The translations under genes were made by a program, and so were the position numbers. A DNA stretch of 33,340 nucleotides from a virus, in IMG/VR virus record IMGVR_UViG_3300000553_003777, positions 1 to 33,340 of that record; one strand, 5' to 3'. The notes under the pieces were generated by a model. That model did not search any database and was not told the DNA's origin. It saw nothing but the letters and a program-made list of their open reading frames with translations. Positions 1,912 to 25,901 of this stretch are shown here, piece by piece (position 1 is the stretch's first letter; the number at the start of each line of letters is the position of its first letter).

Positions 1912-2778
1912 ATGGGTAAGTGTAAAAATTGTGGTGATGAAACTAAAAAGAAAAATGTTTATTGTTCTTTGAAATGTAGAAATATTTATGTCAATAAAAA
2001 TTTAAGAGACTATTCAAAGTTTAAAGAGACAATGAAAAAGAAAAGAGATTCGGCAAAAATAAAATACAATGAGAATCCTAGAAAATGTAAAAATTGTGGA
2101 TCGATATTAAAATTTGAAAAGAATTGGAAAGATGTGAGTTTTTGTAATCATTCTTGCTCAGCCGAATACTCTAACAAAAGACGAAGTGGATATGAATATA
2201 ATTTAACTGAAAAAGGACTTAATAATATTATAAAATCAAATAAAAATAGAAATGGAAATCCTTCAGTTGAATATTATAAAAATCCTAAACATTGTTTAAA
2301 TTGTGGTAAAATTATTGAATATTCAAAGAGAAATAATGGAAATTGTGGCTGGAAATGTAGAAAAGAATATTATTCTAAAAATAAAGAAGATTATCAAGTA
2401 TATTATGAATTATCAAGATTTAAGTTTAATTTGAATGATTTTAATGAAGAATTTGATTTCAGTTTAATTGAAAGATATGGTTGGTATAAAGCAAAAAATA
2501 ATGGTGATAATGTAGATGGAGTTAGTAGGGATCATATGTTTTCTGTGAAAGAGGGATTTAGAAGATTGATAAACCCTTTATTACTTGCTCATCCGGCAAA
2601 TTGTGAATTGATTATTAATAAAAAAAATCAAAGTAAATGTGATGGTTGCTCACTAACAATAAAACAACTTTTAGAAAAGATAAAAGAATTTGAAAATAAA
2701 TATGGTAAGTATTATGATAAAGAAATGAAAGTATATGTAGAATTAGAAGAATTAAAAGTATTGTGGTCTCTTAGTTAA
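1912..2778 (+). CDS. HNH homing endonuclease with zinc-finger repeats
   Basis: This 288-residue protein starts MGKCKNCGDETKKKNVYC and carries three CxxC...C/H-type treble-clef units (about residues 4-25, 58-80 and 125-145) that would bind DNA. The C-terminal catalytic part has SRDHMFSVKEGF, LLLAHPANCEL and IINKKNQSKC, matching the order of HNH motif residues (DH, H-AN, N-K). Homing endonucleases of this kind cut intronless alleles and spread into relatives. The gene sits inside the tRNA array and its last 14 bases are also the 5' acceptor strand of tRNA-Thr(GGU), so insertion did not destroy the tRNA. Confidence 0.85.
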   Translation: MGKCKNCGDETKKKNVYCSLKCRNIYVNKNLRDYSKFKETMKKKRDSAKIKYNENPRKCKNCGSILKFEKNWKDVSFCNHSCSAEYSNKRRSGYEYNLTEKGLNNIIKSNKNRNGNPSVEYYKNPKHCLNCGKIIEYSKRNNGNCGWKCRKEYYSKNKEDYQVYYELSRFKFNLNDFNEEFDFSLIERYGWYKAKNNGDNVDGVSRDHMFSVKEGFRRLINPLLLAHPANCELIINKKNQSKCDGCSLTIKQLLEKIKEFENKYGKYYDKEMKVYVELEELKVLWSLS

Positions 2779-2837
2779 GATGGTGAGAATACGAACTTGG
2801 TAAGTTTGAGACCCCAGATCGTTACTGGGAGAGACCT
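2765..2837 (+). tRNA. tRNA-Thr(GGU)
   Basis: Acceptor GGTCTCT/AGAGACC is perfect; anticodon stem CGAAC/GTTTG, loop TTGGTAA with GGT at 2799-2801; T stem CCCAG/CTGGG. The T loop is ATCGTTA, with A54 and U58 instead of U54 and A58. The first 14 bases overlap the end of the HNH gene. Confidence 0.85.
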
Positions 2838-2838
2838 C

Positions 2839-2905
2839 AAAGATAAAGAATACATTCAGCAATTAAAAAACTTTCTATGGTGAAACAAATCGTATTCTGT
2901 TCTTT
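2839..2905 (+). ncRNA. Structured RNA motif, copy 1
   Basis: Outer helix AAAGA/TCTTT (2839-2843, 2901-2905), internal loop TAAA/TGT, inner helix GAATAC/GTATTC (2848-2853, 2892-2897), then ATTCAGCAATT and a small apical hairpin TTTC/GAAA enclosing an ATGGT-type loop. Three other copies have the same order of parts with different outer helices. It directly follows tRNA-Thr and probably belongs to the same transcript. Confidence 0.75.
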
Positions 2906-2911
2906 AAAAAA

Positions 2912-2986
2912 TTGAACTAAAAGATTACATACAGCAATTAAAAAAAACAAACTTCCAATTTGTAAAAAAAGATAATCTGAGTTCAA
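2912..2986 (+). ncRNA. Structured RNA motif, copy 2
   Basis: Outer helix TTGAAC/GTTCAA (2912-2917, 2981-2986), internal loop TAAAA/TGA, inner helix GATTA/TAATC (2923-2927, 2973-2977), then CATACAGCAATT and an apical hairpin ACAAA/TTTGT. The third inner pair is T-A where the other copies have A-T, a compensatory change. It ends 5 bases before tRNA-Gly(GCC). Confidence 0.75.
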
Positions 2987-2991
2987 AATTT

Positions 2992-3063
2992 GCAGATGTA
3001 GTATAATGGTTATTACGGGGGCTTGCCAAGTCTCATATGCCTGTTCAATTCAGGTCATCTGCT
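2992..3063 (+). tRNA. tRNA-Gly(GCC)
   Basis: Perfect acceptor GCAGATG/CATCTGC, D arm GTA...TAC with TAATGG loop, anticodon stem GGGGC/GTCTC (two G-U pairs), loop TTGCCAA with GCC at 3025-3027, T loop TTCAATT. Confidence 0.88.
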
Positions 3064-3071
3064 CAATAAAT

Positions 3072-3154
3072 GCGGCTATCGTATAATGGTGACGAGAGTT
3101 TGATTATGTCGGTCTTCCAAACCGAGGATGAGAGTTCGATTCTCTCTAGCCGCC
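3072..3154 (+). tRNA. tRNA-Gly(UCC) with enlarged D arm
   Basis: Perfect acceptor GCGGCTA/TAGCCGC, anticodon stem TCGGT/ACCGA, loop CTTCCAA with TCC at 3116-3118, T loop TTCGATT. Between position 9 and the anticodon stem there are about 28 bases instead of about 16; ATAAT and ATTAT could form a longer D stem. The rest is canonical. Confidence 0.82.
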
Positions 3155-3157
3155 AAT

Positions 3158-3241
3158 GTTCCCGTAGTGTAATTGGTAACACCTCACGCTTACATCGTGA
3201 AAACCTAGTCGGATTTACAGGTTCGAGTCCTGTCGGGGAAT
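3158..3241 (+). tRNA. tRNA-Val(UAC) with long variable region
   Basis: Acceptor GTTCCCG/CGGGGAA (a G1-A72 mismatch and one G-U), D stem GTG/CAC, anticodon stem TCACG/CGTGA, loop CTTACAT with TAC at 3191-3193, T stem ACAGG/CCTGT. The variable region (3201-3216) is 16 bases and can form a short stem AAACC/GGATT with one mismatch, which is atypical for valine tRNAs. Confidence 0.8.
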
Positions 3242-3247
3242 ACAAAA

Positions 3248-3321
3248 GTTCTTATGGTGTAATTGGCAACACATCACTTTGACGGAGTGAAGACTTATAG
3301 GTTCGAGTCCTATTGAGAACA
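3248..3321 (+). tRNA. tRNA-Val(GAC)
   Basis: Acceptor GTTCTTA/TGAGAAC, D stem GTG/CAC, anticodon stem TCACT/AGTGA, loop TTGACGG with GAC at 3281-3283, T stem ATAGG/CCTAT with loop TTCGAGT. Canonical, unlike the preceding valine tRNA. Confidence 0.88.
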
Positions 3322-3326
3322 CAGAT

Positions 3327-3402
3327 GGCTCTTAAGCATTTAATGGATGATGTCTAACCTTGTAAGTTAGGGAAGTCGGATCGTTACCGAAATGAGCCTC
3401 CA
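3327..3402 (+). tRNA. tRNA-Thr(UGU), CCA encoded
   Basis: Acceptor GGCTCTT/ATGAGCC (one mismatch), anticodon stem CTAAC/GTTAG, loop CTTGTAA with TGT at 3361-3363, T loop ATCGTTA (A54/U58). This is the only tRNA here with a clearly encoded CCA (3400-3402). Confidence 0.85.
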
Positions 3403-3430
3403 AATTAGAAAAAAGTTAGATTTTTTTATT

Positions 3431-3438
3431 TATATATA
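3431..3438 (+). promoter_or_regulatory. Late-type TATATATA promoter candidate
   Basis: TATATATA after a T-rich stretch, 22 bases before the ATG of the HNH gene at 3461; same context as other late-type boxes in the window. Confidence 0.4.
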
Positions 3439-3460
3439 ATAATAAAAATAATCAAACTAA

Positions 3461-4162
3461 ATGAAGTTAAAAAAAGATTATGTAAAAATATTATCTTGGG
3501 CAAAAAAAATCAAGGCTATAGAAATATTGGGAGGTAAATGTCAACATTGTGGTGATGAAAATGTATTTCATTTAACATATCATCATATGAATCCAGAAGA
3601 AAAAGAATTTAACATGTCATCTATAAGACAAGGGAGATGGAGTAAAATTGAAAAAGAATTAAATAAATGTATATTATTGTGCTATAATTGCCATAATGAA
3701 ATACATAAATTAAATAATAATGAAAACAGTAGATTTAATGAAAATAAGAGATTATTTTTAGAATTTAAAAATATTGATTCTTGTAAAAAATGTGGTTATA
3801 ATAAATATAATGGTTCATTACATTTTCATCATGAAAAGGAAAAATATTTTACTTTGAATAGAGTTATGGTCACTTATAAAACTGTTGACGAATTAAGTGA
3901 AGGCATTACAAAAGAATTAAATAAATGTATAGTTTTATGTGCAAATTGTCATGAAGAACTTCATCATAATACAGGATTTTTTGAAGAATACAAAGAAGAA
4001 ATTTATGAAAAATCTAGAAATGTTAGAGAAAATACTCCAAAGATAGATAGAGAAATAGTAAAAAAAATGTACTTTGAAGAAGGTAAAAGACAAATAGATA
4101 TAATTAGATTTTTTGGTTGCACTAAAGGTACAATTAGTGATATTATAAAGAAATTAAAATAA
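3461..4162 (+). CDS. HNH endonuclease with two HNH units and a C-terminal HTH
   Basis: The 233-residue protein has two tandem HNH/treble-clef units: CQHCGDE...YHHMNPEE...CYNCHNEIH (about residues 28-85) and CKKCGYN...HFHHEKE...CANCHEELH (about 105-170). The last 40 residues (REIVKKMYFEEGKRQIDIIRF and CTKGTISDIIKKLK) look like a helix-turn-helix. It is a full-length paralogue of the minus-strand gene at 26427-27140, with the same order of parts. Its stop is one base from tRNA-Thr(CGU). Its role is probably homing into RNA-gene loci; DNA recognition would come from the HTH and the duplicated zinc knuckles. Confidence 0.85.
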   Translation: MKLKKDYVKILSWAKKIKAIEILGGKCQHCGDENVFHLTYHHMNPEEKEFNMSSIRQGRWSKIEKELNKCILLCYNCHNEIHKLNNNENSRFNENKRLFLEFKNIDSCKKCGYNKYNGSLHFHHEKEKYFTLNRVMVTYKTVDELSEGITKELNKCIVLCANCHEELHHNTGFFEEYKEEIYEKSRNVRENTPKIDREIVKKMYFEEGKRQIDIIRFFGCTKGTISDIIKKLK

Positions 4163-4163
4163 T

Positions 4164-4235
4164 GCCGTTTTAGTTTAACAGGTAGAATAGTTGATTCGTA
4201 ATCATCAGATGCTGAATCGTACTCAGTAAGCGGCT
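4164..4235 (+). tRNA. tRNA-Thr(CGU), copy 1
   Basis: Acceptor GCCGTTT/AAGCGGC (one G-U), anticodon stem GTTGA/TCATC (one mismatch), loop TTCGTAA with CGT at 4197-4199, T stem GCTGA/TCAGT with loop ATCGTAC (A54/U58 again). It starts one base after the HNH stop codon. Confidence 0.78.
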
Positions 4236-4253
4236 CAATATCGGGTATTTGGG

Positions 4254-4272
4254 GAGCCAGGTCACTTGGCTC
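4254..4272 (+). other. Short hairpin between threonine tRNAs
   Basis: GAGCCA pairs with TGGCTC around a 7-base loop and is followed by AAAATAAAA. There is no T-run, so it is a processing signal or spacer hairpin rather than an obvious terminator. Confidence 0.4.
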
Positions 4273-4290
4273 AAAATAAAATAGTTATGT

Positions 4291-4361
4291 TCTGGAGTAA
4301 TATAATGGTATTATTAATCATTCGTAATGATTAAATGGTGGTTCGATCCCACTCTCCAGAT
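4291..4361 (+). tRNA. tRNA-Thr(CGU), copy 2
   Basis: Perfect acceptor TCTGGAG/CTCCAGA, perfect anticodon stem AATCA/TGATT, loop TTCGTAA with CGT at 4323-4325, T loop TTCGATC (normal U54). It has the same anticodon as the previous tRNA but an unrelated body. Confidence 0.85.
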
Positions 4362-4371
4362 CAATAAATAG

Positions 4372-4418
4372 CAGATGTGTTAAGATGTGTTGTGGTTCGA
4401 ACCCGGCATACAACAGAA
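4372..4418 (+). other. Possible tRNA remnant
   Basis: GTGGTTCGAACCC has the look of a T arm, and TACAACA could be a 3' acceptor strand, but no convincing anticodon arm or 5' acceptor precedes it. It is followed by an open stretch reading TEEEAAKLVATNF then stop, perhaps the tail of a lost gene. Low confidence. Confidence 0.25.
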
Positions 4419-4510
4419 GAAGAAGCAGCAAAACTTGTTGCTACAAATTTTTAAACTTTTATTATATAATATTATATCAAAATAAGATTAAATTTTTTGA
4501 TTTATCATAA

Positions 4511-4585
4511 GGCCACATAGCTCAGCGGATTAGCAGCGACAGCCTTCTAAGCTGTAGGTCGAAGGTTCGAATCCTTCTGTGGTCA
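4511..4585 (+). tRNA. tRNA-Arg(UCU), canonical
   Basis: Acceptor GGCCACA/TGTGGTC, D arm GCTC...GC with AGCGGATTA loop, anticodon stem ACAGC/GCTGT, loop CTTCTAA with TCT at 4546-4548, T stem GAAGG/CCTTC. It is a fully normal cloverleaf, unlike the D-arm-less element at 1348 with the same anticodon. Confidence 0.92.
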
Positions 4586-4613
4586 CACTTTTCCTTTTGG
4601 AAGATCCAAAAAA

Positions 4614-4800
4614 CATTGGTGTAGTTCACTCACAACAGAAGTGATAGCCGAACCGCCCGAAAAAGGCAGGCGATTAATTTGAGCGAGTTGTAAGAGTTTA
4701 GAAACCAAATATGTTATCTCTCTTTGGATAGTAGGTGAAGTATCCGTAGATATAGGAGCCCGAAAAAGGCAGGATATGAACTGGGTGCTATAGATAGTAA
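4614..4800 (+). ncRNA. Structured RNA region with a repeated 16-base hairpin
   Basis: This 220-base gap between two arginine tRNAs is rich in helices. TTGGT/ACCAA (4616-4620, 4704-4708) encloses a hairpin TCACT/AGTGA whose loop ACAAC can pair with GTTGT at 4687-4691 (a pseudoknot), and a hairpin closed by CGCC/GGCG. The 16-mer GCCCGAAAAAGGCAGG occurs at 4655-4670 and again at 4758-4773, each able to form GCC/GGC around CGAAAAA; the second is flanked by ATAT/ATAT and preceded by GGATA/TATCC. I do not recognise the family. It could be two related small RNAs or tandem aptamers. Confidence 0.5.
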
Positions 4801-4802
4801 AT

Positions 4803-4885
4803 GCGCCAGTAACCGAGACAGTTTCCTAAACTGTTTATCCGTAATAGGAATGTTGAAAATGAGGGTTCGAGCCCCTTCTGGCGTA
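4803..4885 (+). tRNA. D-arm-less tRNA-Arg(CCU)-like with long variable region
   Basis: Acceptor GCGCCAG/CTGGCGT, then TA at 8-9 and only six bases (ACCGAG) before the anticodon stem ACAGT/ACTGT, so no D stem can form. The loop TTCCTAA gives CCT (4825-4827). The variable region is 26 bases (4835-4860) with a possible TCC/GGA stem; T stem GAGGG/CCCTT with loop TTCGAGC. It shares CTAAAC and TGAAAATG segments with the element at 1348. Confidence 0.65.
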
Positions 4886-5006
4886 CTTAAAGTTCATATT
4901 AATTTTATATTAATTTTATTAAAAATAGGAAAACTAAGTTGACATATATTACTATATATATTTAGGTAAAATAGTAATATTTTCCTTAAAAAATAAATAT
5001 AAAATT

Positions 5007-5312
5007 ATGTCAAAATTGCATGGAGCAACATTAAATGGTCTTGTTAACCCTATGGGTGCGGTTACTACTGTAACATTTGAATATGGAATTGATACTACTT
5101 ACGGTACAGTAGTTGTTCTTCCGGATGCCATTTCCGGTAAAGTAGCATTACCAGTTTCTATTAATATTACAGAACTTGATGCTGATACACTTTATCATTT
5201 CAGAGTTAAGGCGTCAAACATTTCGGGAGAATCTATTGGTGAAGATTTAACATTTACGACTATGGTGGATTTACCTGAGGTTACAACTTTAGCAGCTACA
5301 AATATTAGTTAA
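5007..5312 (+). CDS. Fibronectin type III-like protein
   Basis: A 101-residue protein forming essentially one FN3-type beta sandwich: NPMGAVTTVTFEYGIDTTYG, then ITELDADTLYHFRVKASN and SIGEDLTFTT. The spacing of Y, G and the L-x-x-D-T-x-Y-x-F motif is typical of FN3 repeats in phage tail fibres and virion decoration proteins. The tail LPEVTTLAATNIS looks like the first strand of a second repeat that is missing, so it may be a fragment of, or module for, a longer repeat protein. A probable virion surface role is inferred. Confidence 0.75.
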   Translation: MSKLHGATLNGLVNPMGAVTTVTFEYGIDTTYGTVVVLPDAISGKVALPVSINITELDADTLYHFRVKASNISGESIGEDLTFTTMVDLPEVTTLAATNIS

Positions 5313-5314
5313 TT

Positions 5315-5455
5315 ATGATTTTACTTATAATTATTATATTAATTCAATCCATAATGAATTTAAATCTTTTGTGTTTTATGATCAGATGGTATAGAAGAAG
5401 TAAATTTGTTGGAACTCCTAGTCTTAGAACAAAGAAAGTAACTGGTTTATACTAA
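5315..5455 (+). CDS. Small single-span membrane protein
   Basis: A 46-residue ORF beginning MILLIIIILIQSIMNLNL, a clear hydrophobic transmembrane helix, followed by a basic tail (IRWYRRSKF) ending KKVTGLY. It starts two bases after the FN3 stop and ends at a strong terminator, so both form one unit. The positive-inside rule would place the tail in the cytoplasm. Holin or regulatory roles are possible, but nothing here decides. Confidence 0.6.
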   Translation: MILLIIIILIQSIMNLNLLCFMIRWYRRSKFVGTPSLRTKKVTGLY

Positions 5456-5478
5456 AAGGACGAAAGTCCTTTTTTTTT
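5454..5478 (+). terminator. Intrinsic terminator
   Basis: AAAGGAC/GTCCTTT around a GAAA tetraloop, followed by a long T-run. It lies between the plus-strand FN3 unit and the convergent minus-strand gene ending at 5482. Confidence 0.88.
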
Positions 5479-5481
5479 GTT

Positions 5482-5679
5482 TTAGTCTTCCTTATGTGCT
5501 GACACAATATAACCTAAATAGTTTTCATCCTCAACAAAAAAGGCATACTCACTCTTGGTCATCCCTAAATAATCACATAATGGCAAGTCAGTAATACTGT
5601 TGTGCCATTCTTCAATGTAATCATCAATATCTGATAATATTGCATCACTGTCGATGCATTTTTTTATAAAATTAGACAT
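5482..5679 (-). CDS. Small acidic protein, unknown function
   Basis: 65 residues: MSNFIKKCIDSDAILSDIDD, then EEWHNSITDLPLCDYLGMTK followed by SEYAFFVEDENYLGYIV. The LxxYLGMTxxEYxxFxED pattern recurs in small phage proteins, where short helical domains dominate, but I cannot assign a function. It is the last gene of a minus-strand run with the genes at 5697 and 6158. Confidence 0.6.
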   Translation of the reverse strand: MSNFIKKCIDSDAILSDIDDYIEEWHNSITDLPLCDYLGMTKSEYAFFVEDENYLGYIVSAHKED

Positions 5680-5696
5680 CCGATTTTCTCCTTCTT

Positions 5697-6161
5697 TTAA
5701 AGATTATATTTTTTTGAGATGATAAAACTTTCTAATGTTTCTAAGATTTCGTTTTTATCATTTAATAAAAAAAATAAACATAAATTTCTCGGATTTTGAT
5801 TTGTGATATATTCGCTTAAAGCTTCACTCACGAAATTAAAAAAATCGAGAGATGTATCCTTAAAACTATCCTTAAATATATATATAAACATTGAAACATT
5901 ATCATCTTCTATTTGAAGTATTATTTGTAATAATCTTCCTAAAATTTTATCACTGTAATGAATTTTTATTGAACCATCATCATTAAAATATCTTCTAACA
6001 ATGCCGCTTGATCGTTTTTGGTATGATAGAGTATAACCGTCTATATCTTTAATTTCAATAATAATATCTTCAAGTTTTCTGCTAAAATCTCGTAAAATAT
6101 GATTAACTGCAATTGGATCAGTGTGTTTTATTGCATATTCAAATAATTTTAAATATTTCAT
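5697..6161 (-). CDS. CTS-like/KYNL cassette protein
   Basis: 154 residues, beginning MKYLKLFEYAIKHTDP and ending FIISKKYNL. Its first 27 bases are identical to those of the upstream neighbour at 6158-6496, while the bodies are unrelated, so the start region behaves as a shared module. The middle is rich in aliphatic residues and acidic turns (IILQIEDDNVSMFIYIF). Its ATG overlaps the TGA of the previous gene (ATGA). A T4-type capsid targeting role for the N-terminus is inferred; the body is unrecognised. Confidence 0.75.
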   Translation of the reverse strand: MKYLKLFEYAIKHTDPIAVNHILRDFSRKLEDIIIEIKDIDGYTLSYQKRSSGIVRRYFNDDGSIKIHYSDKILGRLLQIILQIEDDNVSMFIYIFKDSFKDTSLDFFNFVSEALSEYITNQNPRNLCLFFLLNDKNEILETLESFIISKKYNL

Positions 6162-6496
6162 AAGTTATATTTATTTGCTAATTTTTCAAGTTCAATTTCT
6201 TTAACCTTTTCTTCGTATTCCTTTCTGCTAAATGGTCCTGATATGAAATCTGTATGAACATCAAATTCTCTTTCTATAGCTCGATGTTCTATTTCATCAT
6301 CTGTTATTCTATAATCAACTTTAAAATGTGGAATATAACCCCGATAAACAATCCCTTGCTCTGGTTCGCTCTGAACAATAATTTTACCATAAATATTATA
6401 AATCCAATCATATTGAGGTTGATTATATGCTAGTATGACCAAATCACCATTTCGATATTCGTGATATTTATATTCAAATAATTTTAAATATTTCAT
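6158..6496 (-). CDS. CTS-like/KYNL cassette protein
   Basis: 112 residues, beginning MKYLKLFEYKYHEYRNGDLV and ending ELEKLANKYNL. After the shared start, the segment YRNGDLVILAY...YGKIIVQSEPEQG resembles a small SH3-like barrel; this is only an impression. A TATATATA box lies immediately upstream (6502-6509 on this strand). It is first in the minus-strand run of three genes. Confidence 0.75.
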   Translation of the reverse strand: MKYLKLFEYKYHEYRNGDLVILAYNQPQYDWIYNIYGKIIVQSEPEQGIVYRGYIPHFKVDYRITDDEIEHRAIEREFDVHTDFISGPFSRKEYEEKVKEIELEKLANKYNL

Positions 6497-6548
6497 TCAT
6501 TTATATATAATTTTTTTTATATCAAAATAAATAATTATATTTGTAAAT

Positions 6549-7262
6549 ATGACGAGATTCGAAGACTATTTTAACCAACAAATTAAAAATTTTAATGAAT
6601 ATCATTCTAATTTATTAAAGGAAACAACAGAAGATGATATACATAAAATAAGGACTACCATTAAGCGATTGAAATCATTTAATATCCTTTTAGATGGTTT
6701 ACTTTTCAGACAAAAAGATTTTCCGACTGAACTAAATAATTTATTTCATTTGGCAGGTGAAATCAGGGACATTCAAATTCAACAAAAAATTCTTGAAGAT
6801 TACGATGATGGATATAAAAATTATCTTCTTTTTATGTATGAGGATAAGGTATCCAAATTTCAGATTAAAGAAAGTTTTGAAAAGGAAATTCAGCACCTAA
6901 CAGATAAATTAAATTTAGTGGAAGATTATCATATTGATGAACAAGCAATTATAAATATAAAGGTTTATATTGAATTGAGTTATAATGATATTCGTAATAT
7001 GATTAAAGATATTTCACCTGAAAATTTACATGAAATAAGAAAGAAGATTAAAAGAGTTTATTACACACTTTTAATATTGGATGATTTAACTGATATTGAT
7101 AAATTAGATTTGATACAGGATAAAATTGGATTGTGGCACGATTGTGATGTTACAATTGAAAATATCAGAAATTTTGATAATAATTTACATATAATCAAAT
7201 CTTTAAAAAAGAAAAGAGATTCACTTTATGATGAATCTCTTGAATTGATTAAATCGTTTTAA
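6549..7262 (+). CDS. CHAD domain protein
   Basis: 237 residues with two halves that each carry the CHAD signature of conserved basic residues on helices: DDIHKIRTTIKRLKS (about 29-43, with H32, R35, K39, R40) and NLHEIRKKIKRV (159-170, with H161, R164, K168, R169). Helix motifs LAGEIRDIQ (68-76) and GLWHDCDV (194-201) match the family's second conserved helix. CHAD domains are alpha-helical, bind inorganic polyphosphate and often sit with polyphosphate enzymes. None is next to this gene, and a free-standing CHAD protein in a phage is unusual. Its last bases overlap the convergent gene at 7259. Confidence 0.82.
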   Translation: MTRFEDYFNQQIKNFNEYHSNLLKETTEDDIHKIRTTIKRLKSFNILLDGLLFRQKDFPTELNNLFHLAGEIRDIQIQQKILEDYDDGYKNYLLFMYEDKVSKFQIKESFEKEIQHLTDKLNLVEDYHIDEQAIINIKVYIELSYNDIRNMIKDISPENLHEIRKKIKRVYYTLLILDDLTDIDKLDLIQDKIGLWHDCDVTIENIRNFDNNLHIIKSLKKKRDSLYDESLELIKSF

Positions 7263-7501
7263 TATCTACTGATTAAGTTGTTTAAGATATTGTCAAATGA
7301 CATATCGTAATCTGTGTCTCCTTCTGCGTCTGGATGTCCATTTCTAGAACACCAAGCATAAAATTGTTCTTCTAAATCTGCAACAATTTCTCCGACTTTT
7401 GTTTTTGCTTCATCAAATTCAGGAGAATCTTGAAATCCCATTTCAACATCTTCTATTGGTGCTGATTCGTTAATAACATTAAAATTTTTTACATGTTTCA
7501 T
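7259..7501 (-). CDS. Small acidic protein with CTS-like N-terminus
   Basis: I prefer the second ATG (MKHVKNFNVINESAPIED, 80 residues) over one three codons upstream because it matches the start of the gene at 8424 (MKHVKDFKINES) and the window-wide N-terminal motif. The rest is acidic and helical, ending FDNILNNLISRY. It could be an internal head protein. It is convergent with and overlaps the CHAD gene by four bases. Confidence 0.7.
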   Translation of the reverse strand: MKHVKNFNVINESAPIEDVEMGFQDSPEFDEAKTKVGEIVADLEEQFYAWCSRNGHPDAEGDTDYDMSFDNILNNLISRY

Positions 7502-7643
7502 AATCGGCAATTATTTTTTAGTATATATTAATATTTTTAACGAATTTTTCTTTTCTTTTATATTTGTTCAAATACCAAGTATTTTTTTGGCAGTTATTTT
7601 ACGCGGGGCATGACAGCAGTTTAAAAATCTAAAATTTCATTTA

Positions 7644-7987
7644 TCATAGAATAATAATCAGTTTATTGGTTTTTACATATTCTGATTTATTGGAATATCC
7701 AAATGTACCTGATGGTTTACCAGTTCCTGTTGAACTATAGGATTCAAAAACTGGCAATTTATCACCATAAATGTGAATTTGATTTTTGTCATTAATTAAT
7801 CTTTGTAATTTTTCAAGATTTGTTTTGATGTCTTGATCATGAAGACTTTGAATTTTCAATTTTCTAAGTCCTTTTAGGTCAAAATTAAAGATCCAATCAT
7901 GTTGGGTTTTTTTATTTCTGAAAAACTTAATAGAAAATTTATCGTTTCTTGATTGTAAAAAGTTGTACTATTCAATCCAATATACAT
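7644..7987 (-). pseudogene. Split small gene, unknown function
   Basis: An ATG at 7987 reads MYIGLNSTTF, and a second frame, open from about 7967 to 7644 without an ATG, reads NDKFSIKFFRNKKTQHDWIF and continues to KSEYVKTNKLIIIL. One base change at the five-base homopolymer at 7957-7961 joins them into about 114 residues. The second frame looks protein-like (amphipathic, few rare residues), so it is likely a real gene with a frameshift or an assembly indel. Function unknown. Confidence 0.45.
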
Positions 7988-8094
7988 ATAATTATAATTA
8001 TTTTTTATAAAATATGTAGTTATTTTTATATGATTGGTTGCCTAAAAAGTTAAAAAAAAGATGATTCACTTTATGATCTTCACATTTTTCTAAT

Positions 8095-8424
8095 TTAGAT
8101 GTCATGTTTTTCTGGATCATATGGTTCTGCTGAATAAGCTAGCCAACTTTCTCGTTCTTGATTATAGATTTCCTCTGCTATTTCCTCGTCAACATTATCT
8201 TCTTCCATAATTTCATCTATTGTTCTTAACCCGTGTAATCCTACATAGGATTCATAATCTTCACAAGCTTTTTCCCAAGCGTAAGTATTTGCTTCATCTT
8301 CATCCTTAGCATCAATAATTTCAAAATTATTTGCTCCACCAAAACCACCACCTAATCCATAAGAAATGAACCATTTACCTTGTTCTATTGATTCATTAAT
8401 TTTAAAATCTTTTACATGTTTCAT
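8095..8424 (-). CDS. Small acidic protein with CTS-like N-terminus
   Basis: 109 residues, starting MKHVKDFKINESIEQGKWF. The segment WFISYGLGGGFGGANNFEII, then an alanine-, aspartate- and glutamate-rich helix (KDEDEANTYAWEKACEDYES), resembles a family of small phage proteins I have seen without known function. The start closely matches the gene at 7501. Its acidic, glycine-loop composition would fit a soluble head-internal or regulatory protein. Confidence 0.72.
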   Translation of the reverse strand: MKHVKDFKINESIEQGKWFISYGLGGGFGGANNFEIIDAKDEDEANTYAWEKACEDYESYVGLHGLRTIDEIMEEDNVDEEIAEEIYNQERESWLAYSAEPYDPEKHDI

Positions 8425-8476
8425 ATTTTTGTATTATTTTTAAACTTTTCTAAGAAATTTTTTATTTTTGTTTCTG

Positions 8477-8522
8477 AAAACATTTTGATTTTTAATTCTA
8501 TAGAAGTCAAAATGTTTTTTTA
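8477..8522. terminator. Long hairpin, probable terminator
   Basis: AAAACATTTTGA (8477-8488) pairs perfectly with TCAAAATGTTTT (8507-8518), followed by T's on the plus strand. On the minus strand it lies between the split gene at 8527-8711 and the gene at 8095-8424 and could end the upstream minus-strand transcript. Confidence 0.6.
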
Positions 8523-8526
8523 TCTT

Positions 8527-8711
8527 TCATTCTTGCATTTTTAACTTTCTTAAATTCTTCAATGACAGATGATAGTAATAAACGCCATAATATTCATCTT
8601 TAAGTTTTTCAATTTCAGGAATTTTATTTAGAAAATTTCTAATCGGGTTTACATTGTTTTTGAGGTATTCATATCTGAATCATAATAACCTTTTAATATT
8701 GCAAAGTACAT
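8527..8711 (-). pseudogene. Split small gene, unknown function
   Basis: ATG at 8711 reads MYFAILKGYYDSDM and then leaves frame. A shift of one base near 8665 restores EYLKNNVNPIRNFLNKIPEI, then KLKDEYYGVYYYHLSLKNLR and KLKMQE to a stop at 8527, giving about 61 residues. A TATATATA box (8725-8732) lies 13 bases upstream, as for intact genes, which argues that this was or is expressed. Function unknown. Confidence 0.45.
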
Positions 8712-8737
8712 AATAGTTTTCTTTTATATATAAAATT

Positions 8738-9532
8738 TTAGATAATAGGTTGTCCTAAAAAGTAATGATTTCTTTTTGAAATTTTTATATCACTTTCATA
8801 AGATTCCTTATCAAATAATAATATAGTTTGCGAACCCCATACAAAATAACCTAATTTATCTGCTATTTCTATTGTGTCACCTTTTTTAACGAGAAAATTG
8901 AAATCTTGAATTGCAGATTCACCAACTAATAGCATATAAACTGGTTTCTTTTCGGTTTCAAATTCTAAGAACCAGAGAGTATTTTTACCAAATAAACCTA
9001 ATTTTTTATCGACTGGAATTGCTCTTTTTAATTTACCAGAAATTGGCGAATGAATATTATGATAATAACTCACCAGAAGTTTCATATTAACGAACCAATA
9101 GTTTTCATCAACTCCTAAATTTTTAAGATCCTGAGCAACCTGAGTAGTGGATTTTTTCAATCTAATGATGCTTGAGGTATCTTTAACTTGTCCTATAGAT
9201 TCAATATTACATTCGTTAGGAATTATAATTTGAGATTTTTTTGCTTGTTTTTTAATTTCTTTGAATTTATCTGGTACTATACTTCTATTAAAAAAGTCCA
9301 TAAAGTTCTCATAGTCATTGATAAACCATTCTTGATGGACTTCTGATGTCTTCATCCTCCAAAATTTGTTATTTTTTGCGTCTTTCGACTTGAAACACTC
9401 TATTAAATTTTGTATATTTTCAGTACCTATTTCCTTGTATTTCACATATTTAAGTTTTGAAAGTATGTATCTCTCGTTTGCCCTAATAGATACTAATTTA
9501 AATAACTCTTCGAGGATTTTTTCATCATTCAT
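8738..9532 (-). CDS. psd: Phosphatidylserine decarboxylase-like protein
   Basis: 264 residues with the order of motifs of phosphatidylserine decarboxylase, the pyruvoyl enzyme that makes phosphatidylethanolamine: DFFNRS (79-84), YYHNIHSP (156-163, family YHxxHSP) and YFVWGSQTILLF (229-240), which contains the Gly233-Ser234 bond where the proenzyme cleaves itself. The conserved PADG motif that supplies the Asp of the self-cleavage triad reads PNEC (105-108), so Asp is replaced by Glu or lost; activity may be altered. No N-terminal membrane helix is obvious, and it is shorter than E. coli Psd (322). It starts 4 bases after the stop of the DUF3326 gene, so the two are co-transcribed. Confidence 0.85.
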   Translation of the reverse strand: MNDEKILEELFKLVSIRANERYILSKLKYVKYKEIGTENIQNLIECFKSKDAKNNKFWRMKTSEVHQEWFINDYENFMDFFNRSIVPDKFKEIKKQAKKSQIIIPNECNIESIGQVKDTSSIIRLKKSTTQVAQDLKNLGVDENYWFVNMKLLVSYYHNIHSPISGKLKRAIPVDKKLGLFGKNTLWFLEFETEKKPVYMLLVGESAIQDFNFLVKKGDTIEIADKLGYFVWGSQTILLFDKESYESDIKISKRNHYFLGQPII

Positions 9533-9536
9533 TTCA

Positions 9537-10814
9537 TTAATTTATTATTTTTGTCGGACCAATTGGTCTGTTTAAGGAATAAGGACTTATTCCTGATTTT
9601 AAAGCCACAAGGATTCCTGCTGCTTCTAAATAATTTTTTGCTTTAAAGAATTGATTTTTATTCCAAGGCAATAATGAAAGATCATTTTTCATTAAATTTG
9701 TTTCATCTTCAATTGCTATAACTGGAATATTTTGTTCTAATGCAGAAATTAATGGTAAACCTATACATCTATCTGGTGTTACTAATGCACTTATATTTCT
9801 ATTTGTAATAACACCAGGTTGGCTTACGGGCTCAACAATTCTTGGTGATTGATACATACCTTTGATTGTGCAAAATAGTTCTGTTGTAGATAATATTTCG
9901 GGAGTTTTTCTAGGATCAATAATTTCAAATGGATATTCTAAAAACATTTTTTCTAAAACTGGTGCGTGAGCACAAGGTACATCATAAAGATTTGATATTG
10001 TATGTGTGAGTAGCGCTTCCGCAGATCCCCAAGGATTAGCAAGGTTTTTATCATTACTATAATAATTATCTAATAATTCTTGTGTATCACCATCTAACAA
10101 TGTATATAAAATAAATGAATCATAATTATCTTTATGTTGTTCAATGATATTTGTTAATTTTTCAAGTTTGTTTATCTTACCTGTTGCCATACCGAGTTCA
10201 TTATAAAATATTTCATAATAAGGTGTATCACTCAATTCAATAACATCTATTTCACAACCAAGTGTCACTCTTGCAGCTGATGCCATATTAATAGGACGAA
10301 AGTTATGATAATGATTACTGGTGTTGGTATCAAAAATTAAAAGAATTTTGTTCATTTTAGTTGGTGCAAGTCCAATAGTACCCATCATAAATCTATTTAA
10401 TATACTGCCTTCGACATAAAGGGTATTTGTTGTCATTTCATTTATATCTGCAGCATTTACAACATTTGGATGTGTAATCAAGGTGTCAGCAACATTACCA
10501 AGAAGTCTTGCTGATGGATTACCATCACCAGAATTACCACCTACATCTGCTCTAATACCTGTTGGAATAATTTGAACCACATTAAATGTAGTTTCATCTT
10601 TAATTTTTATTGGATTGAACTCGAATATATTCTTATATTGATGATTACCAATATTTTCTATTTCAGCATATTCACATTCTATATTATTATTTTTATAATC
10701 TATAATAGCAAATCTTGAAATATTTCTATTTTTAAAAAATTCTTTTAATCTATTAAAATTTCCTTTTGAATTAAAAGAAAATGTTACTTTTTCATTTTTC
10801 TGTGAAACTTCCAT
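9537..10814 (-). CDS. DUF3326 family protein
   Basis: 425 residues. The core (about residues 78-420) matches the DUF3326 family as I remember it: VVQIIPTGIRADVGGNSGDG, then ARLLGNVADTLITHPNVVN (followed by AAD), then NTLYVEGSILNRFMMG and, near the end, GVITNRNISALVTPD. The glycine-rich GGNSGD loop and THPNVVN look like a ligand site, but the biochemical role of the family is unknown to me. The first 75 residues are an extra domain. Its start overlaps the end of the split GIY-YIG gene by 23 bases, and its stop is 4 bases from the Psd-like gene, suggesting a joint function, possibly in lipid or membrane metabolism (inference). Confidence 0.75.
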   Translation of the reverse strand: MEVSQKNEKVTFSFNSKGNFNRLKEFFKNRNISRFAIIDYKNNNIECEYAEIENIGNHQYKNIFEFNPIKIKDETTFNVVQIIPTGIRADVGGNSGDGNPSARLLGNVADTLITHPNVVNAADINEMTTNTLYVEGSILNRFMMGTIGLAPTKMNKILLIFDTNTSNHYHNFRPINMASAARVTLGCEIDVIELSDTPYYEIFYNELGMATGKINKLEKLTNIIEQHKDNYDSFILYTLLDGDTQELLDNYYSNDKNLANPWGSAEALLTHTISNLYDVPCAHAPVLEKMFLEYPFEIIDPRKTPEILSTTELFCTIKGMYQSPRIVEPVSQPGVITNRNISALVTPDRCIGLPLISALEQNIPVIAIEDETNLMKNDLSLLPWNKNQFFKAKNYLEAAGILVALKSGISPYSLNRPIGPTKIIN

Positions 10815-11073
10815 CTTTATTTCTTGTTAATTTTTTTATCAATTTGTAGCCGTTGTATTCACCATTTTTTAATATGGCGGTTTTATAATCAAAAAAAGAT
10901 AATAAATTCCTATAGGAATTCATATTAATAATTTCTCCATTGGGTGCTTCTAATACATATATAACTTTTACATAACCTTTTTGAACTCCACCACTACGAT
11001 TTTGTTTCATTTTTTCTACACTTTCTTTGGAGTGTTTTTTACCAAACATACCATTTTTTTTCACCAGATGCAA
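10792..11073 (-). CDS. C-terminal part of split GIY-YIG endonuclease
   Basis: This frame continues the GIY-YIG gene: NGMFGKKHSKESVEKMKQN repeats the FGKKHSKESIEKMKN motif of the upstream part (a NUMOD3-type DNA-binding repeat), followed by EAPNGEIINMNSYRNLLSFF and a C-terminal helical module typical of NUMOD1. The two frames meet at a run of eight A's (11054-11061). Its independent start is doubtful, so it should be read as the tail of 11039-11503. It overlaps the DUF3326 start. Confidence 0.6.
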   Translation of the reverse strand: MHLVKKNGMFGKKHSKESVEKMKQNRSGGVQKGYVKVIYVLEAPNGEIINMNSYRNLLSFFDYKTAILKNGEYNGYKLIKKLTRNKDGSFTEK

Positions 11074-11503
11074 TACCTTTATGAGAATTTTTCATTTTTT
11101 CTATACTTTCTTTGGAGTGTTTTTTACCAAAAAAATAGTTATTTTCACCTGATAATTTTTGAGATATTTTTTTAATTATTTCTGCTCTATTAGGATTATT
11201 TGTGTATGTATCACCACCCTCTCCACCAGTAGAAATATTATAACCGTTAGGCAATAAGGATTTTAATTTTTTTATCCAATATTTCTCTCTTTCCCACATT
11301 TCTTCAAATGTTTTACATTTCTCAATTTCTGATATTTCAAAATTTTCTATGCCATATTTTTTAAAGGCTGAGTATAACGGTCTATTCTCGTTATATTTTG
11401 ATCTTTTTATATGTTTGATAAGTCTTGTGTTGATATCTTTTTCGTTTGTCATACCAACATAAATTTTATGATTAATCTTATTCTCTATCTTATAAATAAA
11501 CAT
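11039..11503 (-). CDS. GIY-YIG homing endonuclease, N-terminal part
   Basis: 154 residues with the GIY-YIG catalytic fold: MFIYKIENKINHKIYVGMT (the paired Y...YVG), R and H in NTRLIKHIKRSKYNENRP, and E in EEMWEREKYWIKKL. NGYNISTGGEGG follows, then a NUMOD3 motif (FGKKHSKESIEKMKN). The frame ends just after GEKK at a run of eight A's; a one-base shift continues into 10792-11073 for a total of about 236 residues. Homing endonucleases of this family cut a neighbouring gene; the site could be in the DUF3326 gene whose start it overlaps. Confidence 0.8.
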   Translation of the reverse strand: MFIYKIENKINHKIYVGMTNEKDINTRLIKHIKRSKYNENRPLYSAFKKYGIENFEISEIEKCKTFEEMWEREKYWIKKLKSLLPNGYNISTGGEGGDTYTNNPNRAEIIKKISQKLSGENNYFFGKKHSKESIEKMKNSHKGIASGEKKWYVW

Positions 11504-11590
11504 TCTTATACTTAAAATTTTTTATTATATATTATATTTTCAAGTTCATTTTTGTTAAAAACACTCGTTCAAAAATAGAAAAAACTGATA

Positions 11591-11610
11591 TTTTTATATA
11601 AATATATAAG
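11591..11610 (+). promoter_or_regulatory. Late-type promoter candidate before the RNA block
   Basis: TTTTTATATAAATATATAAG preceded by an A-rich AAAATAGAAAAAA element, much like the sequence before 900 and before 3461. It is the only promoter-like sequence I see ahead of the structured RNAs at 11712-12006. Confidence 0.4.
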
Positions 11611-11711
11611 TAGTTGGTTTTAAATGAATTAAAAGAAATAAAAAATTATAAAAGATTTTTCAAACTTTTTTCTGGTTTTAAACTAACATTATATCCGTTC
11701 ATTGAAAAAGT

Positions 11712-11788
11712 AAAATTATTGAAGGAATACACACAGCAATCACAAAAACTTTCAAATGGTGAAACAAAAACGTATTCTGCATAATTTT
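11712..11788 (+). ncRNA. Structured RNA motif, copy 3
   Basis: Outer helix AAAATTAT/ATAATTTT (11712-11719, 11781-11788), internal loop TGAAG/TGC, inner helix GAATAC/GTATTC (11725-11730, 11772-11777), then ACACAGCAATCA and apical hairpin TTTCA/TGAAA, with ATGGTGAAACAAA as in copy 1. The outer helix shares no sequence with the other copies yet is perfectly paired. Confidence 0.78.
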
Positions 11789-11799
11789 CTTAACATATA

Positions 11800-12006
11800 C
11801 TCATAAAGAATACATTCTGCAAGTAAAACTTACAAATATGTAAACTTGAAACGCCGTGATGGGCGTAGTGTTTTAAACTTTTCTAAAGTTTTCACTATGG
11901 TTGGCTCATCACCGAAAATAAAAGGAAAGGCTAAACCGAACAAAAACTGGAAAAGAAATTTTTACCCCTGAGTTTTTTGAGAAACAAACTCTTGTATTCT
12001 GTTGAG
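11800..12006 (+). ncRNA. Structured RNA motif, copy 4 (long version)
   Basis: Outer helix CTCA/TGAG (11800-11803, 12003-12006), internal loop TAAA/TGT, inner helix GAATAC/GTATTC (11808-11813, 11994-11999), then ATTCTGCAAG. The interior is about 180 bases: a hairpin CAAGT...ACTTG with TTACA/TGTAA; a long nested hairpin GTGATG/CATCAC, TAGTG/CACTA and AACTTT/AAAGTT (about 11854-11912); and GAGTTT/AAACTC near the end. The long nested arm recalls Y RNA-like architecture. It ends about 210 bases before the Ro-like gene. Confidence 0.75.
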
Positions 12007-12012
12007 GATTTA

Positions 12013-12038
12013 GTACACTATGGTAAGGGATAGTGTGC
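12013..12038 (+). other. Stable hairpin after RNA copy 4
   Basis: GTACACTAT pairs with ATAGTGTGC (nine pairs, one G-U) around the loop GGTAAGGG. It lies between the copy 4 outer helix and the terminator and may be the 3' domain of the same RNA. Confidence 0.55.
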
Positions 12039-12044
12039 GTCTAA

Positions 12045-12084
12045 AAAATCCCAACTGAAGAAATTTAGTTGGGATTTTTTATTT
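12045..12084 (+). terminator. Intrinsic terminator of the RNA block
   Basis: AAAATCCCAACT (12045-12056) pairs with AGTTGGGATTTT (12067-12078), followed by TTATTTT. It separates the structured RNAs from the leader of the Ro-like gene and fits an RNA-only transcript ending here. Confidence 0.88.
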
Positions 12085-12143: not shown

Positions 12144-12216
12144 AAAACCTCTCAAGATTGCTAACAGCAAAAAAAGTAAATGCAATCTGAGAATAAAAAA
12201 CAAACAAGGAGGTTTT
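12144..12216 (+). promoter_or_regulatory. Leader able to hide the Shine-Dalgarno of the Ro-like gene
   Basis: The gene at 12217 has a strong Shine-Dalgarno (AAGGAGG), rare in this window. Upstream, AAAACCT (12144-12150) is complementary to AGGTTTT (12210-12216), enclosing a hairpin CTC-AGATTGC/GCAATCT-GAG (12151-12161, 12182-12191, one bulged A). Closed, this fold covers the ribosome site and reaches the start codon, so translation could be controlled by a protein, by RNA or by temperature. Confidence 0.55.
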
Positions 12217-12651
12217 ATGAACTCAAATTCAAATTTAGTAAACGCAACAAGACAAGAAGATACCTTAACCGCAAACAGTATGGTAACAAATTCAACATCA
12301 TTGAATTCATGTGTTGATATGTTCTTTTTAGCAGGTGCTTCAAGGAATATGACAGAAAAAGATATCGAGATTCTTTTTCAGAAAGCAATTGTGGAAAATC
12401 CATTAGTTGCGCTTAAACTTATGTTTTGGGCAAGAGATGTCAGAGGTGGTGCTGGTGAAAGAAGGTTTTTCAGAATTTGTTCTAAATTCTTGAGAAAAAA
12501 CTATCCTGATTTACTGATTAAAAATTTGAGAAGTATTGCTGAATATGGAAGATATGATGATGTAACTTTCTTGTTAAGTGAAGGTGAAAATGATAAAATT
12601 GATAAAGAGATTCTCTTTTATATAAAAGAAACTTTAGAAGGTGATAAATGA
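12217..12651 (+). CDS. DUF2828/Ro60-like protein, N-terminal helical part
   Basis: 144 residues that match the N-terminal helical-repeat part of DUF2828 proteins: CVDMFFLAGASRNMTEKDIE, then NPLVALKLMFWARDVRGGAG followed by ERRFFRICSKFL and AEYGRYDDVTFLLS. The WARDxRGGxGER motif is the family hallmark. DUF2828 and TROVE (Ro60) proteins share this plan of a helical-repeat ring closed by a vWA domain that binds RNA ends. The start has a near-perfect Shine-Dalgarno (AAGGAGG, 8 bases upstream). The frame stops at TGA (12649) just where the vWA-containing frame takes over; together they give about 479 residues, close to a full-length family member. Confidence 0.8.
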   Translation: MNSNSNLVNATRQEDTLTANSMVTNSTSLNSCVDMFFLAGASRNMTEKDIEILFQKAIVENPLVALKLMFWARDVRGGAGERRFFRICSKFLRKNYPDLLIKNLRSIAEYGRYDDVTFLLSEGENDKIDKEILFYIKETLEGDK

Positions 12652-25529: not shown

Positions 25530-25901
25530 ATGATAGCAGAACAATATATTAGAGATGGTGTAAGATTAAGAAAATCTTATATTGAAAATTTAAAGCAAAT
25601 TTTGAAACAAGAGCCTGCTATAAATGATAAAAAGCAAGTTTTTGAAGATTTAAAGAATGAAATGGAAAAAATAGTTCATTCTGATTTAAATGATGTCAGA
25701 AAAACATTAGAACTTAATAATAAATTAAATGTACTTGATAAAGAAATTAGAAAAGTACAAGAAATTTTAAAACCTTATTATGATGCTATTGAAAATTTGA
25801 AATTTGAAAGGGATAGATTATATATAGCAATTAAAGAAAAATATCCAAATATAACTGACAGAGAAATAGAATCAGAAATAATGGCACATATAGAAGAATG
25901 A
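25530..25901 (+). CDS. Unknown coiled-coil protein
   Basis: I use the ATG at 25530 (MIAEQYIRDGVRLRKSYIEN, 123 residues) rather than an in-frame TTG 21 bases upstream. Nearly all helical with heptads (LKNEMEKIVHSDLNDVRKTL, LNVLDKEIRKVQEILK), ending EIESEIMAHIEE. The stop overlaps the next ATG. No family recognised; a structural or chaperone-like role would suit a coiled coil of this length. Confidence 0.62.
   Translation: MIAEQYIRDGVRLRKSYIENLKQILKQEPAINDKKQVFEDLKNEMEKIVHSDLNDVRKTLELNNKLNVLDKEIRKVQEILKPYYDAIENLKFERDRLYIAIKEKYPNITDREIESEIMAHIEE

What the first reader, a model, noticed from the sequence alone, without database searches (positions are those of the whole stretch)
2839..12006. An undescribed structured RNA family, four copies in two clusters
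At 2839-2905, 2912-2986, 11712-11788 and 11800-12006 the same parts occur in the same order: outer helix, internal loop (UAAA, UAAAA, UGAAG or UAAA on the 5' side; UGU, UGA, UGC or UGU on the 3' side), inner helix GAAUAC/GUAUUC, then AnnC(A/U)GCAA, then an apical part. The four outer helices differ completely (AAAGA/UCUUU, UUGAAC/GUUCAA, AAAAUUAU/AUAAUUUU, CUCA/UGAG), yet each pairs perfectly. In copy 2 the inner helix has a swapped pair (GAUUA/UAAUC). This covariation within one genome is strong evidence for selected RNA structure. I know no named family with this plan.
Basis: seen in the sequence. Interest (0 to 1): 0.92.

Follow-up and report, generated by a model that had tools for sequence, protein, structure and literature searches.

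The report
Phage Y-RNA-like RNAs for Ro-like protein
A large phage carries five copies of a small structured RNA that, across phages, bacteria and archaeal MAGs, sits beside the gene for a Ro60-like RNA-binding protein, and that closely resembles an RNA class thought to exist only in social amoebae, so all of these may be parts of one ancient RNA-handling machine.

Summary
The four copies exist as drawn, and I found a fifth at 12150-12192, in the leader of the next gene. They belong to a large RNA family: a 6-bp covarying stem, usually starting with G, with N3-CAGCAA after its 5' arm and (U)G after its 3' arm. The outer helix is real here but not general. Copies 3-5 lie just upstream of a DUF2828 gene; its predicted fold has a phage Ro60 as the only significant PDB hit. 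RNAs of this kind flank DUF2828 genes in phages of Listeria, Shigella, Staphylococcus, Mycobacterium, Campylobacter and Vibrio, and in bacterial and archaeal MAG genomes never used for training (71 of 72 hits on the gene's strand). In several relatives the loop holds the tRNA-like module of YrlA, the bacterial Y RNA. Best explanation: these are Y-RNA-like partners of a Ro60-like protein, with copy 5 probably autoregulatory. "No named family" is not quite right: copy 1 passes Rfam's cut-off for Dictyostelium Class I RNA, and that model hits the same RNAs in other phages. Homology to Class I RNAs is suggestive, not proven. Binding and expression are untested.

The parts
2839..2905 (+). RNA copy 1, directly after tRNA-Thr; stem 2848-2853/2892-2897, CAGCAA 2857-2862, outer helix AAAGA/UCUUU
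   Evidence: R2 54.1 bits; RF01414 41.7 bits, above gathering score; fold
2912..2986 (+). RNA copy 2, between copy 1 and tRNA-Gly; inner stem GAUUA/UAAUC, outer helix UUGAACU/AGUUCAA
   Evidence: R2 43.1 bits; RF01414 26.8 bits; fold
11712..11788 (+). RNA copy 3; stem 11725-11730/11772-11777, outer helix AAAAUUAU/AUAAUUUU
   Evidence: R2 44.2 bits; RF01414 26.3 bits; fold
11800..12006 (+). RNA copy 4, long form with about 180 nt apical domain; stem GAAUACA/UGUAUUC, motif CUGCAA; conserved in L003-L006
   Evidence: alignment A6, consensus fold, R1 22.3 bits
12043..12080 (+). intrinsic terminator closing the transcription unit of copies 3 and 4 (preceded by a small hairpin, about 12013-12040)
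   Evidence: fold z-score -7.9 followed by U run
12150..12192 (+). RNA element copy 5 in the leader of the DUF2828 gene; outer UCUCA/UGAGA, inner GAUUGC/GCAAUC, UAACAGCAA
   Evidence: R2 33.8 bits (part of the R2 seed); found first by R1, 26.4 bits, not in its seed; fold z -4.93; equivalents before DUF2828 in L005, L006 and L091
12217..12651 (+). N-terminal half of a split DUF2828 (Ro60-like) gene
   Evidence: Pfam PF11443 E 4.6e-15
12641..13657 (+). C-terminal half: DUF2828 end plus DUF7788 (VWA-like, DVSGSM)
   Evidence: Pfam PF25043 E 2.1e-47, PF11443 E 1.9e-22; homologue model resembles phage Ro60 9l5y
2765..2838 (+). tRNA-Thr immediately 5' of copy 1
   Evidence: ARAGORN, Rfam
2992..3064 (+). 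tRNA-Gly immediately 3' of copy 2
   Evidence: ARAGORN, Rfam

Best explanation
These RNAs are Y-RNA-like noncoding RNAs that form a ribonucleoprotein with the Ro60-like DUF2828 protein encoded next to copies 3-5. The docking element is the 6-bp stem with N3-CAGCAA leaving the 3' end of its 5' arm and (U)G leaving the 3' end of its 3' arm. What is held in the loop varies (about 20 to 180 nt) and in relatives includes tRNA-like modules; it would be the part that blocks or directs the protein's RNA-binding ring. Copies 1 and 2 lie in the tRNA array and would be cut out by tRNA processing; copies 3 and 4 form their own terminated unit; copy 5 lets the protein bind its own mRNA leader and limit its synthesis. 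The likely role is quality control, repair or turnover of tRNAs and other structured RNAs during infection. Shown: the structure, covariation, linkage to DUF2828, Ro-like predicted fold, YrlA-type modules in relatives. Inferred: binding, processing, autoregulation, and the cellular role.
For: Linkage: R2 on 67 DUF2828 loci, 91 of 92 hits on the gene's strand; on 80 bacterial and archaeal MAG DUF2828 loci not used in training, 71 of 72 on the gene's strand, mostly within 400 nt upstream. 26 of 28 DUF2828 phage records have a hit of at least 30 bits (includes seed records) against 0 of 12 records clearly without DUF2828. In 150 Lachnospiraceae genomes the top three R2 hits all lie next to a DUF2828 gene on its strand, two of them (G044, G048) in genomes not chosen for it. 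Fold: pLDDT 82 model of a DUF2828 homologue; only PDB match with E below 0.001 is Ro60 of Thermus phage phiLo, TM 0.52/0.52. Y-RNA likeness: Rfam YrlA hits inside CAGCAA stems in L154, Mycobacterium phage Moostard and Serratia phage BF. Permuted element inside tRNA-like RNAs in Lachnospiraceae. Leader copies before DUF2828 in window, L005, L006, L091; in Vibrio phage ValKK3 the 3' arm of the stem contains the start codon. RNA ligase, RtcB or tRNA nucleotidyltransferase genes near DUF2828 in Listeria, Salmonella and Serratia phages.
Against: No binding or expression data for these RNAs. DUF2828 matches Ro60 by fold only; the sequence match to solved Ro60/TROVE is not significant (E 0.32). No YrlA match reaches its gathering score (69 bits; best 41.6), and the window's own copies hold no recognisable tRNA module. 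Some DUF2828 phages keep the RNAs in tRNA clusters or gaps far from the gene. In 391 Clostridia genomes, hits of 32-38 bits occur without an adjacent DUF2828, so the model alone is not specific genome-wide below about 40 bits. One of 28 DUF2828 phage records (G010, perhaps a fragment) gave no hit.
Confidence: 0.8

Rival explanations
1. The element is a cis-regulatory mRNA structure: DUF2828 (or the ribosome) binds it only to control its own expression, and the other copies are leftovers or regulate neighbouring genes.
For: A copy sits in the DUF2828 leader in the window, L005, L006, L091 and overlaps the start codon in ValKK3; many bacterial copies are 50-400 nt upstream of the gene.
Against: Most phage genomes have several copies; many lie among tRNAs or downstream of the gene; copies 3 and 4 are followed by a strong terminator before the gene; long copies carry conserved or tRNA-like loops.
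Confidence: 0.08
2. The elements belong to tRNA-array biology (processing signals, decoys for anticodon nucleases or tRNA-modifying enzymes) and the DUF2828 link is secondary.
For: Copies 1-2 and those of Sf14, PC14 and BF lie between or beside tRNA genes; tRNA-like modules occur in some copies.
Against: Lachnospiraceae and other cellular loci have DUF2828 and the RNA without a tRNA array; T4, a tRNA-bearing phage without DUF2828, has only a 19-bit hit.
Confidence: 0.06
3. Chance A+T-rich hairpins and recent local duplication.
For: Window is A+T-rich; fold z-scores of copies 1-3 alone are modest; some weak R2 hits in Clostridia look like chance.
Against: 52 against 4 hits by strand with about 4 expected, covariation of the stem across phyla, and an invariant motif.
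Confidence: 0.01
4. The RNAs act through another partner (for example an RRM protein, as reported for Dictyostelium Class I RNA and Rnp1A) and merely share an operon with DUF2828.
For: Class I RNA DdR-21 binds the RRM protein Rnp1A (PMC7919456).
Against: DUF2828 is the gene common to loci spanning many phyla and phages, and its leader carries the element.
Confidence: 0.05

Closest known systems
Dictyostelium Class I RNA (Rfam RF01414)
   Same: 5' G, 6-bp covarying stem joining both ends, ACAGCAA motif beside the 5' arm, variable loop of about 40 nt, CUG 3' end. RF01414 finds the same RNAs in 15 of 20 DUF2828 phage records; 29 of its 31 hits coincide with R2 hits.
   Different: Only copy 1 passes the gathering score. 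Spacer between stem and CAGCAA is 3 nt here, 4 in the RF01414 consensus; T3 of the 11-nt motif is not invariant here. Reported as unique to dictyostelids (PMC7919456); their reported partner is an RRM protein. Whether dictyostelids have DUF2828 could not be tested.
YrlA, bacterial Y RNA (Rfam RF02553), partner of Rsr/Ro60
   Same: Small RNA next to a Ro-type gene; base stem plus, in some relatives, the same tRNA-like module in the order T-arm, acceptor-like hairpin, D-arm.
   Different: Base stem is a different element (CAGCAA stem in place of the YrlA base); no match reaches 69 bits; window copies lack the module; protein is DUF2828, not TROVE-annotated.
Ro60/TROVE protein with Y RNA
   Same: Predicted fold: N-terminal helical repeats and C-terminal VWA-like domain; best PDB fold match is Thermus phage phiLo Ro60 9l5y.
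   Different: Pfam places it in DUF2828/DUF7788; no significant sequence match to Ro60; canonical Y RNA family gave no hit in the window.

Membership tests
Dictyostelium Class I RNA (RF01414) | score at or above Rfam gathering score | tested here: inconclusive
   copy 1 41.7 against 41.5; copies 2 and 3 26.8 and 26.3; copy 4 none; other phage copies up to 37.1
Dictyostelium Class I RNA (RF01414) | 5' G and 6-bp covarying stem joining the ends | tested here: met
   first pair GC in 38 of 39 phage-set copies, 35 of 54 bacterial-set copies (the rest mostly AU)
Dictyostelium Class I RNA (RF01414) | 11-nt motif with T3, C6, C9, A10, A11 almost invariant | tested here: inconclusive
   C6, C9, A10, A11 kept; T3 variable and spacer one nt shorter
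Dictyostelium Class I RNA (RF01414) | found only in dictyostelids, with DUSE promoter | tested here: not met
   phage, bacterial and archaeal MAG sequences; published claim in PMC7919456; promoter itself not tested
Dictyostelium Class I RNA (RF01414) | bound by the same protein | not testable with these tools
   no dictyostelid genomes or binding data on hand
YrlA (RF02553) | score at or above Rfam gathering score | tested here: not met
   best 41.6 against 69; none in window
YrlA / bacterial Y RNA | tRNA-like module | tested here: inconclusive
   present inside the stem in L086, L112, L153, L154 (two), L170, L174; absent from window copies
YrlA / bacterial Y RNA | encoded with a Ro-type protein | tested here: met
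   DUF2828 adjacency and Ro60-like predicted fold
YrlA / bacterial Y RNA | binds the Ro-type protein | not testable with these tools
   needs RIP or EMSA
Ro60/TROVE protein | Ro60 fold: helical-repeat ring plus VWA domain | tested here: met
   AF2 model pLDDT 82, pTM 0.80; Foldseek 9l5y E 3.4e-5, TM 0.52, for a homologue (L006), as the window gene is split
Ro60/TROVE protein | significant sequence match to TROVE/Ro60 | tested here: not met
   profile search of PDB sequences best E 0.32; Pfam hits DUF2828 and DUF7788 only
tRNA | cloverleaf called by ARAGORN or Rfam | tested here: not met
   copies not called

The most novel reading that the evidence does not exclude
The DUF2828 protein and the CAGCAA-stem RNAs are a second, previously unrecognised lineage of Ro/Y RNA particles shared by phages, bacteria, archaea and, through Class I RNAs, dictyostelid amoebae. 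Class I RNAs, until now called unique to social amoebae and tied to their multicellularity, would be Y-RNA-like members of this family, and should have a DUF2828-type partner.
Probability: 0.45. Interest if true: 0.95.

Novelty: new variant of a known kind. Interest (0 to 1): 0.88.

Why it matters
DUF2828 genes are common in phages (675 records in the phage collection match) and scattered through bacteria, often annotated only as RNA-binding or hypothetical, with no RNA partner described in the literature I could search. This gives a candidate partner, with a short recognisable binding element, and so makes the function of a large protein family directly testable. It suggests that the tRNA-like module of bacterial Y RNAs is portable between two different base stems. 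It also removes the apparent isolation of Dictyostelium Class I RNAs: a published claim that they are unique to social amoebae can now be tested against a prokaryotic and phage family with nearly the same plan.

Tried and rejected
Outer helix as a family feature: tested on 74 copies, only weakly above swapped flanks; kept as a local feature. The published 158-nt most densely transcribed ncRNA of Campylobacter phage NCTC 12673 (PMC6024767): at first looked like my Campylobacter copies, but the sequence at 7110-7267 lacks CAGCAA and has other neighbours, so it is not used as expression evidence. Rfam Qrr hit at 11969-12082: sub-threshold and explained by the terminator hairpin. R2 hit at 25812-25876: inside an ORF, motif UAGCAA, dismissed. 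Class-wide co-occurrence in 391 Clostridia: inconclusive, since only a few candidates per genome are scored and weak hits without DUF2828 look like chance. Control search via PRPP synthetase and thymidine kinase relatives gave few loci, so named phages were added. Literature: no paper found on DUF2828 with an RNA partner; the Ro60 review cited by others is not held.
Full report
CHECK OF THE OBSERVATION. The window is a 33.3 kb virus record of a large A+T-rich phage (T4-type gp23 trace, 5'-3' exonuclease, tRNA array, tmRNA). Copies 1 and 2 lie in tandem between tRNA-Thr (2765-2838) and tRNA-Gly (2992-3064). Copies 3 and 4 lie in tandem at 11712-12006 and are followed by a strong intrinsic terminator at 12043-12080. 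Fold energies of copies 1-3 alone are not striking (z about -1.7 to -2.0), so the case rests on comparison.

A LARGE FAMILY. The gene after copy 5 is a DUF2828/DUF7788 gene. I collected 80 related viral loci. A strand-symmetric scan for a G-initial stem of at least 6 bp, three or more nt, C(A/T)GCAA and a closing arm followed by TG gave 52 matches on the DUF2828 strand, 4 on the other, and 4.3 in shuffled sequence. A first covariance model R1 found 54 further or known copies, all 54 on the gene's strand, among them three in tandem before DUF2828 of Listeria phage LP-124 and several between tRNAs in Shigella phage Sf14. A wider model R2 gave 92 hits in 67 loci, 91 on the gene's strand. The stem covaries at all six pairs; the motif C(A)GCAA and the G after the 3' arm are nearly invariant.

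INDEPENDENT TEST IN CELLULAR GENOMES. DUF2828 genes were found at 80 loci of bacterial and archaeal genomes, most of them MAGs. None was used to train R2. R2 gave 72 hits, 71 on the gene's strand, most within 400 nt upstream; 54 of them aligned show 99.7% pairing, six of six pairs with two-sided changes and covariation 0.840 against 0.271. In 150 Lachnospiraceae genomes, 19 have DUF2828; the three best R2 hits lie next to DUF2828, same strand, within 200 nt of its matched domain. One of the three (G016) is the genome chosen for it; G044 and G048 were not. Only three of 19 were detected, so sensitivity in such a scan is low. In a class-wide scan weak hits without DUF2828 appear, so hits under about 40 bits should not be trusted outside DUF2828 loci. 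Some of these cellular loci carry long tRNA arrays and may be phages or prophages binned with their hosts.

WHOLE PHAGE GENOMES AND CONTROLS. In 28 whole DUF2828 phage records R2 finds hits in 27, 26 of them at 30 bits or more (some are seed records). Where the DUF2828 neighbourhood has none, the hits lie in intergenic gaps or tRNA clusters: Serratia phage BF at 301-307 kb between tRNAs, phiAS5, PHA46 and ValKK3 in gaps. Twelve records without a DUF2828 match (T4, phiKZ, SPO1, ICP1, phage K and seven IMG/VR contigs) have none at 30 bits (maximum 26.9); crAss001 has only a weak, below-cut-off DUF2828 match and a 19-bit RNA hit.

THE PROTEIN. An AlphaFold2 model of the intact homologue in L006 has mean pLDDT 82 and pTM 0.80, with N-terminal helical repeats and a C-terminal alpha/beta domain. 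The only PDB match with E below 0.001 is Ro60 of Thermus phage phiLo (9l5y; TM 0.52 both ways); the next are VWA domains. By sequence the Ro60 match is not significant (E 0.32). So the protein works like, and probably is, a distant Ro60 relative; it is not a TROVE member by sequence test.

Y-RNA FEATURES. In a Hyphomicrobiales MAG locus (L154) Rfam's YrlA model hits twice, inside two CAGCAA stems (41.6 and 26.5 bits; gathering score 69). Reading the sequence, the loop holds a T-arm, an acceptor-like hairpin and a D-arm, the order of YrlA. The same layout is found inside the stems of copies in Mycobacterium phage Moostard, Serratia phage BF, Treponema, Acidimicrobiales and Mycolicibacterium, and the top YrlA hits of those two phages coincide with it (many weak YrlA hits elsewhere are probably ordinary tRNAs, since control genomes ring too). 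In Lachnospiraceae a different fusion occurs: a tRNA-like RNA upstream of DUF2828, called by Rfam but not ARAGORN, carries the element circularly permuted, as arm 2-UG-loop-arm 1-N3-CAGC; its stem pairs 100% with six of six pairs changing on both sides over 14 sequences (the 14 were found by a scan that required pairing). The same parts in two connectivities argue that the stem, CAGCAA and UG form one protein-binding module.

HOW IT PROBABLY WORKS. Shown: RNA structure, its linkage to DUF2828, the Ro-like predicted fold, tRNA-like modules in relatives. Inferred: DUF2828 binds the stem/CAGCAA/UG module; the variable loop gates or directs the protein's RNA-binding ring, as Y RNAs are thought to do for Ro60 (established knowledge of the Ro60/Y RNA field); copies 1-2 are released from the tRNA transcript by tRNA end processing, copies 3-4 from their own terminated transcript; copy 5 lets the protein repress its own mRNA. 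In Vibrio phage ValKK3 the 3' arm of such a stem includes the DUF2828 start codon, which fits autoregulation. RNA ligase, RtcB-like or tRNA nucleotidyltransferase genes lie near DUF2828 in Listeria, Salmonella and Serratia phages, which fits a role in tRNA quality control or repair. That last step is the least certain (about 0.4).

DICTYOSTELIUM CLASS I RNA. Copy 1 passes the Rfam gathering score for RF01414. On 20 whole DUF2828 phage records RF01414 gives 31 hits at E up to 0.1 in 15 records, and 29 coincide with R2 hits; none but copy 1 passes the gathering score. It also hits a Woesearchaeota MAG copy at 32.4 bits. Class I RNAs are described as having an invariant 5' G, a 6-bp compensating stem and an 11-nt motif, and as unique to dictyostelids (PMC7919456). 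The plan is the same; the spacer is one nt shorter here and T3 of the motif varies. This is either homology or convergence on a common kind of binding site. I could not search dictyostelid genomes for DUF2828.

NOVELTY. I found no description of a DUF2828 RNA partner and no Rfam family other than RF01414 for the canonical copies. It is a new variant of a known kind (Ro/Y RNA particles), with a possible cross-domain link that would be more than that.

Noticed in passing
window 12217-13657: DUF2828 is split into two overlapping ORFs; L003 is split at the same place, with about 800 nt between the halves, while L004-L006 have one ORF. Perhaps an old intron or homing-element scar, or a two-chain protein.
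   Followed up: partly
L145:5740-5862, L156, L144, L151, L155, L160, L164, L172, L178, L184, L185, L197: Circularly permuted CAGCAA element inside tRNA-like RNAs upstream of DUF2828 in Lachnospiraceae and other Clostridia.
   Followed up: yes
L154:2052-2183 and 2768-2882; L086:5107-5234; L112:11200-11319; L153; L170; L174: YrlA-type tRNA-like modules held in the loop of CAGCAA stems.
   Followed up: yes
L096:2111-2268 (Campylobacter phage NCTC12673 7110-7267): Published most densely transcribed ncRNA of this phage holds two hairpins whose 3' arm is followed by UG, but no CAGCAA; possibly a divergent relative.
   Followed up: partly
window 26020-26388: Phage-borne tmRNA gene (Rfam 81.9 bits) with a long predicted tag.
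   Followed up: no
window 20815-22137: dUTPase with a LAGLIDADG-like insert in its N-terminal half, likely an intein or a fused homing domain.
   Followed up: no
window 11039-11503 (-): GIY-YIG/NUMOD3 homing endonuclease gene just upstream of copies 3 and 4; HNH-type genes at 3461-4162 and 26427-27140.
   Followed up: no
window 8738-10814 (-): Phosphatidylserine decarboxylase-like gene beside a DUF3326 gene, unusual for a phage.
   Followed up: no
L025, L030, L044, L058, L063, L067 (downstream of DUF2828): A copy (GGUUCC/GGAACC) is followed at once by a second, longer RNA-like stretch beginning GGAUCGGUACAGCAA; not analysed.
   Followed up: partly
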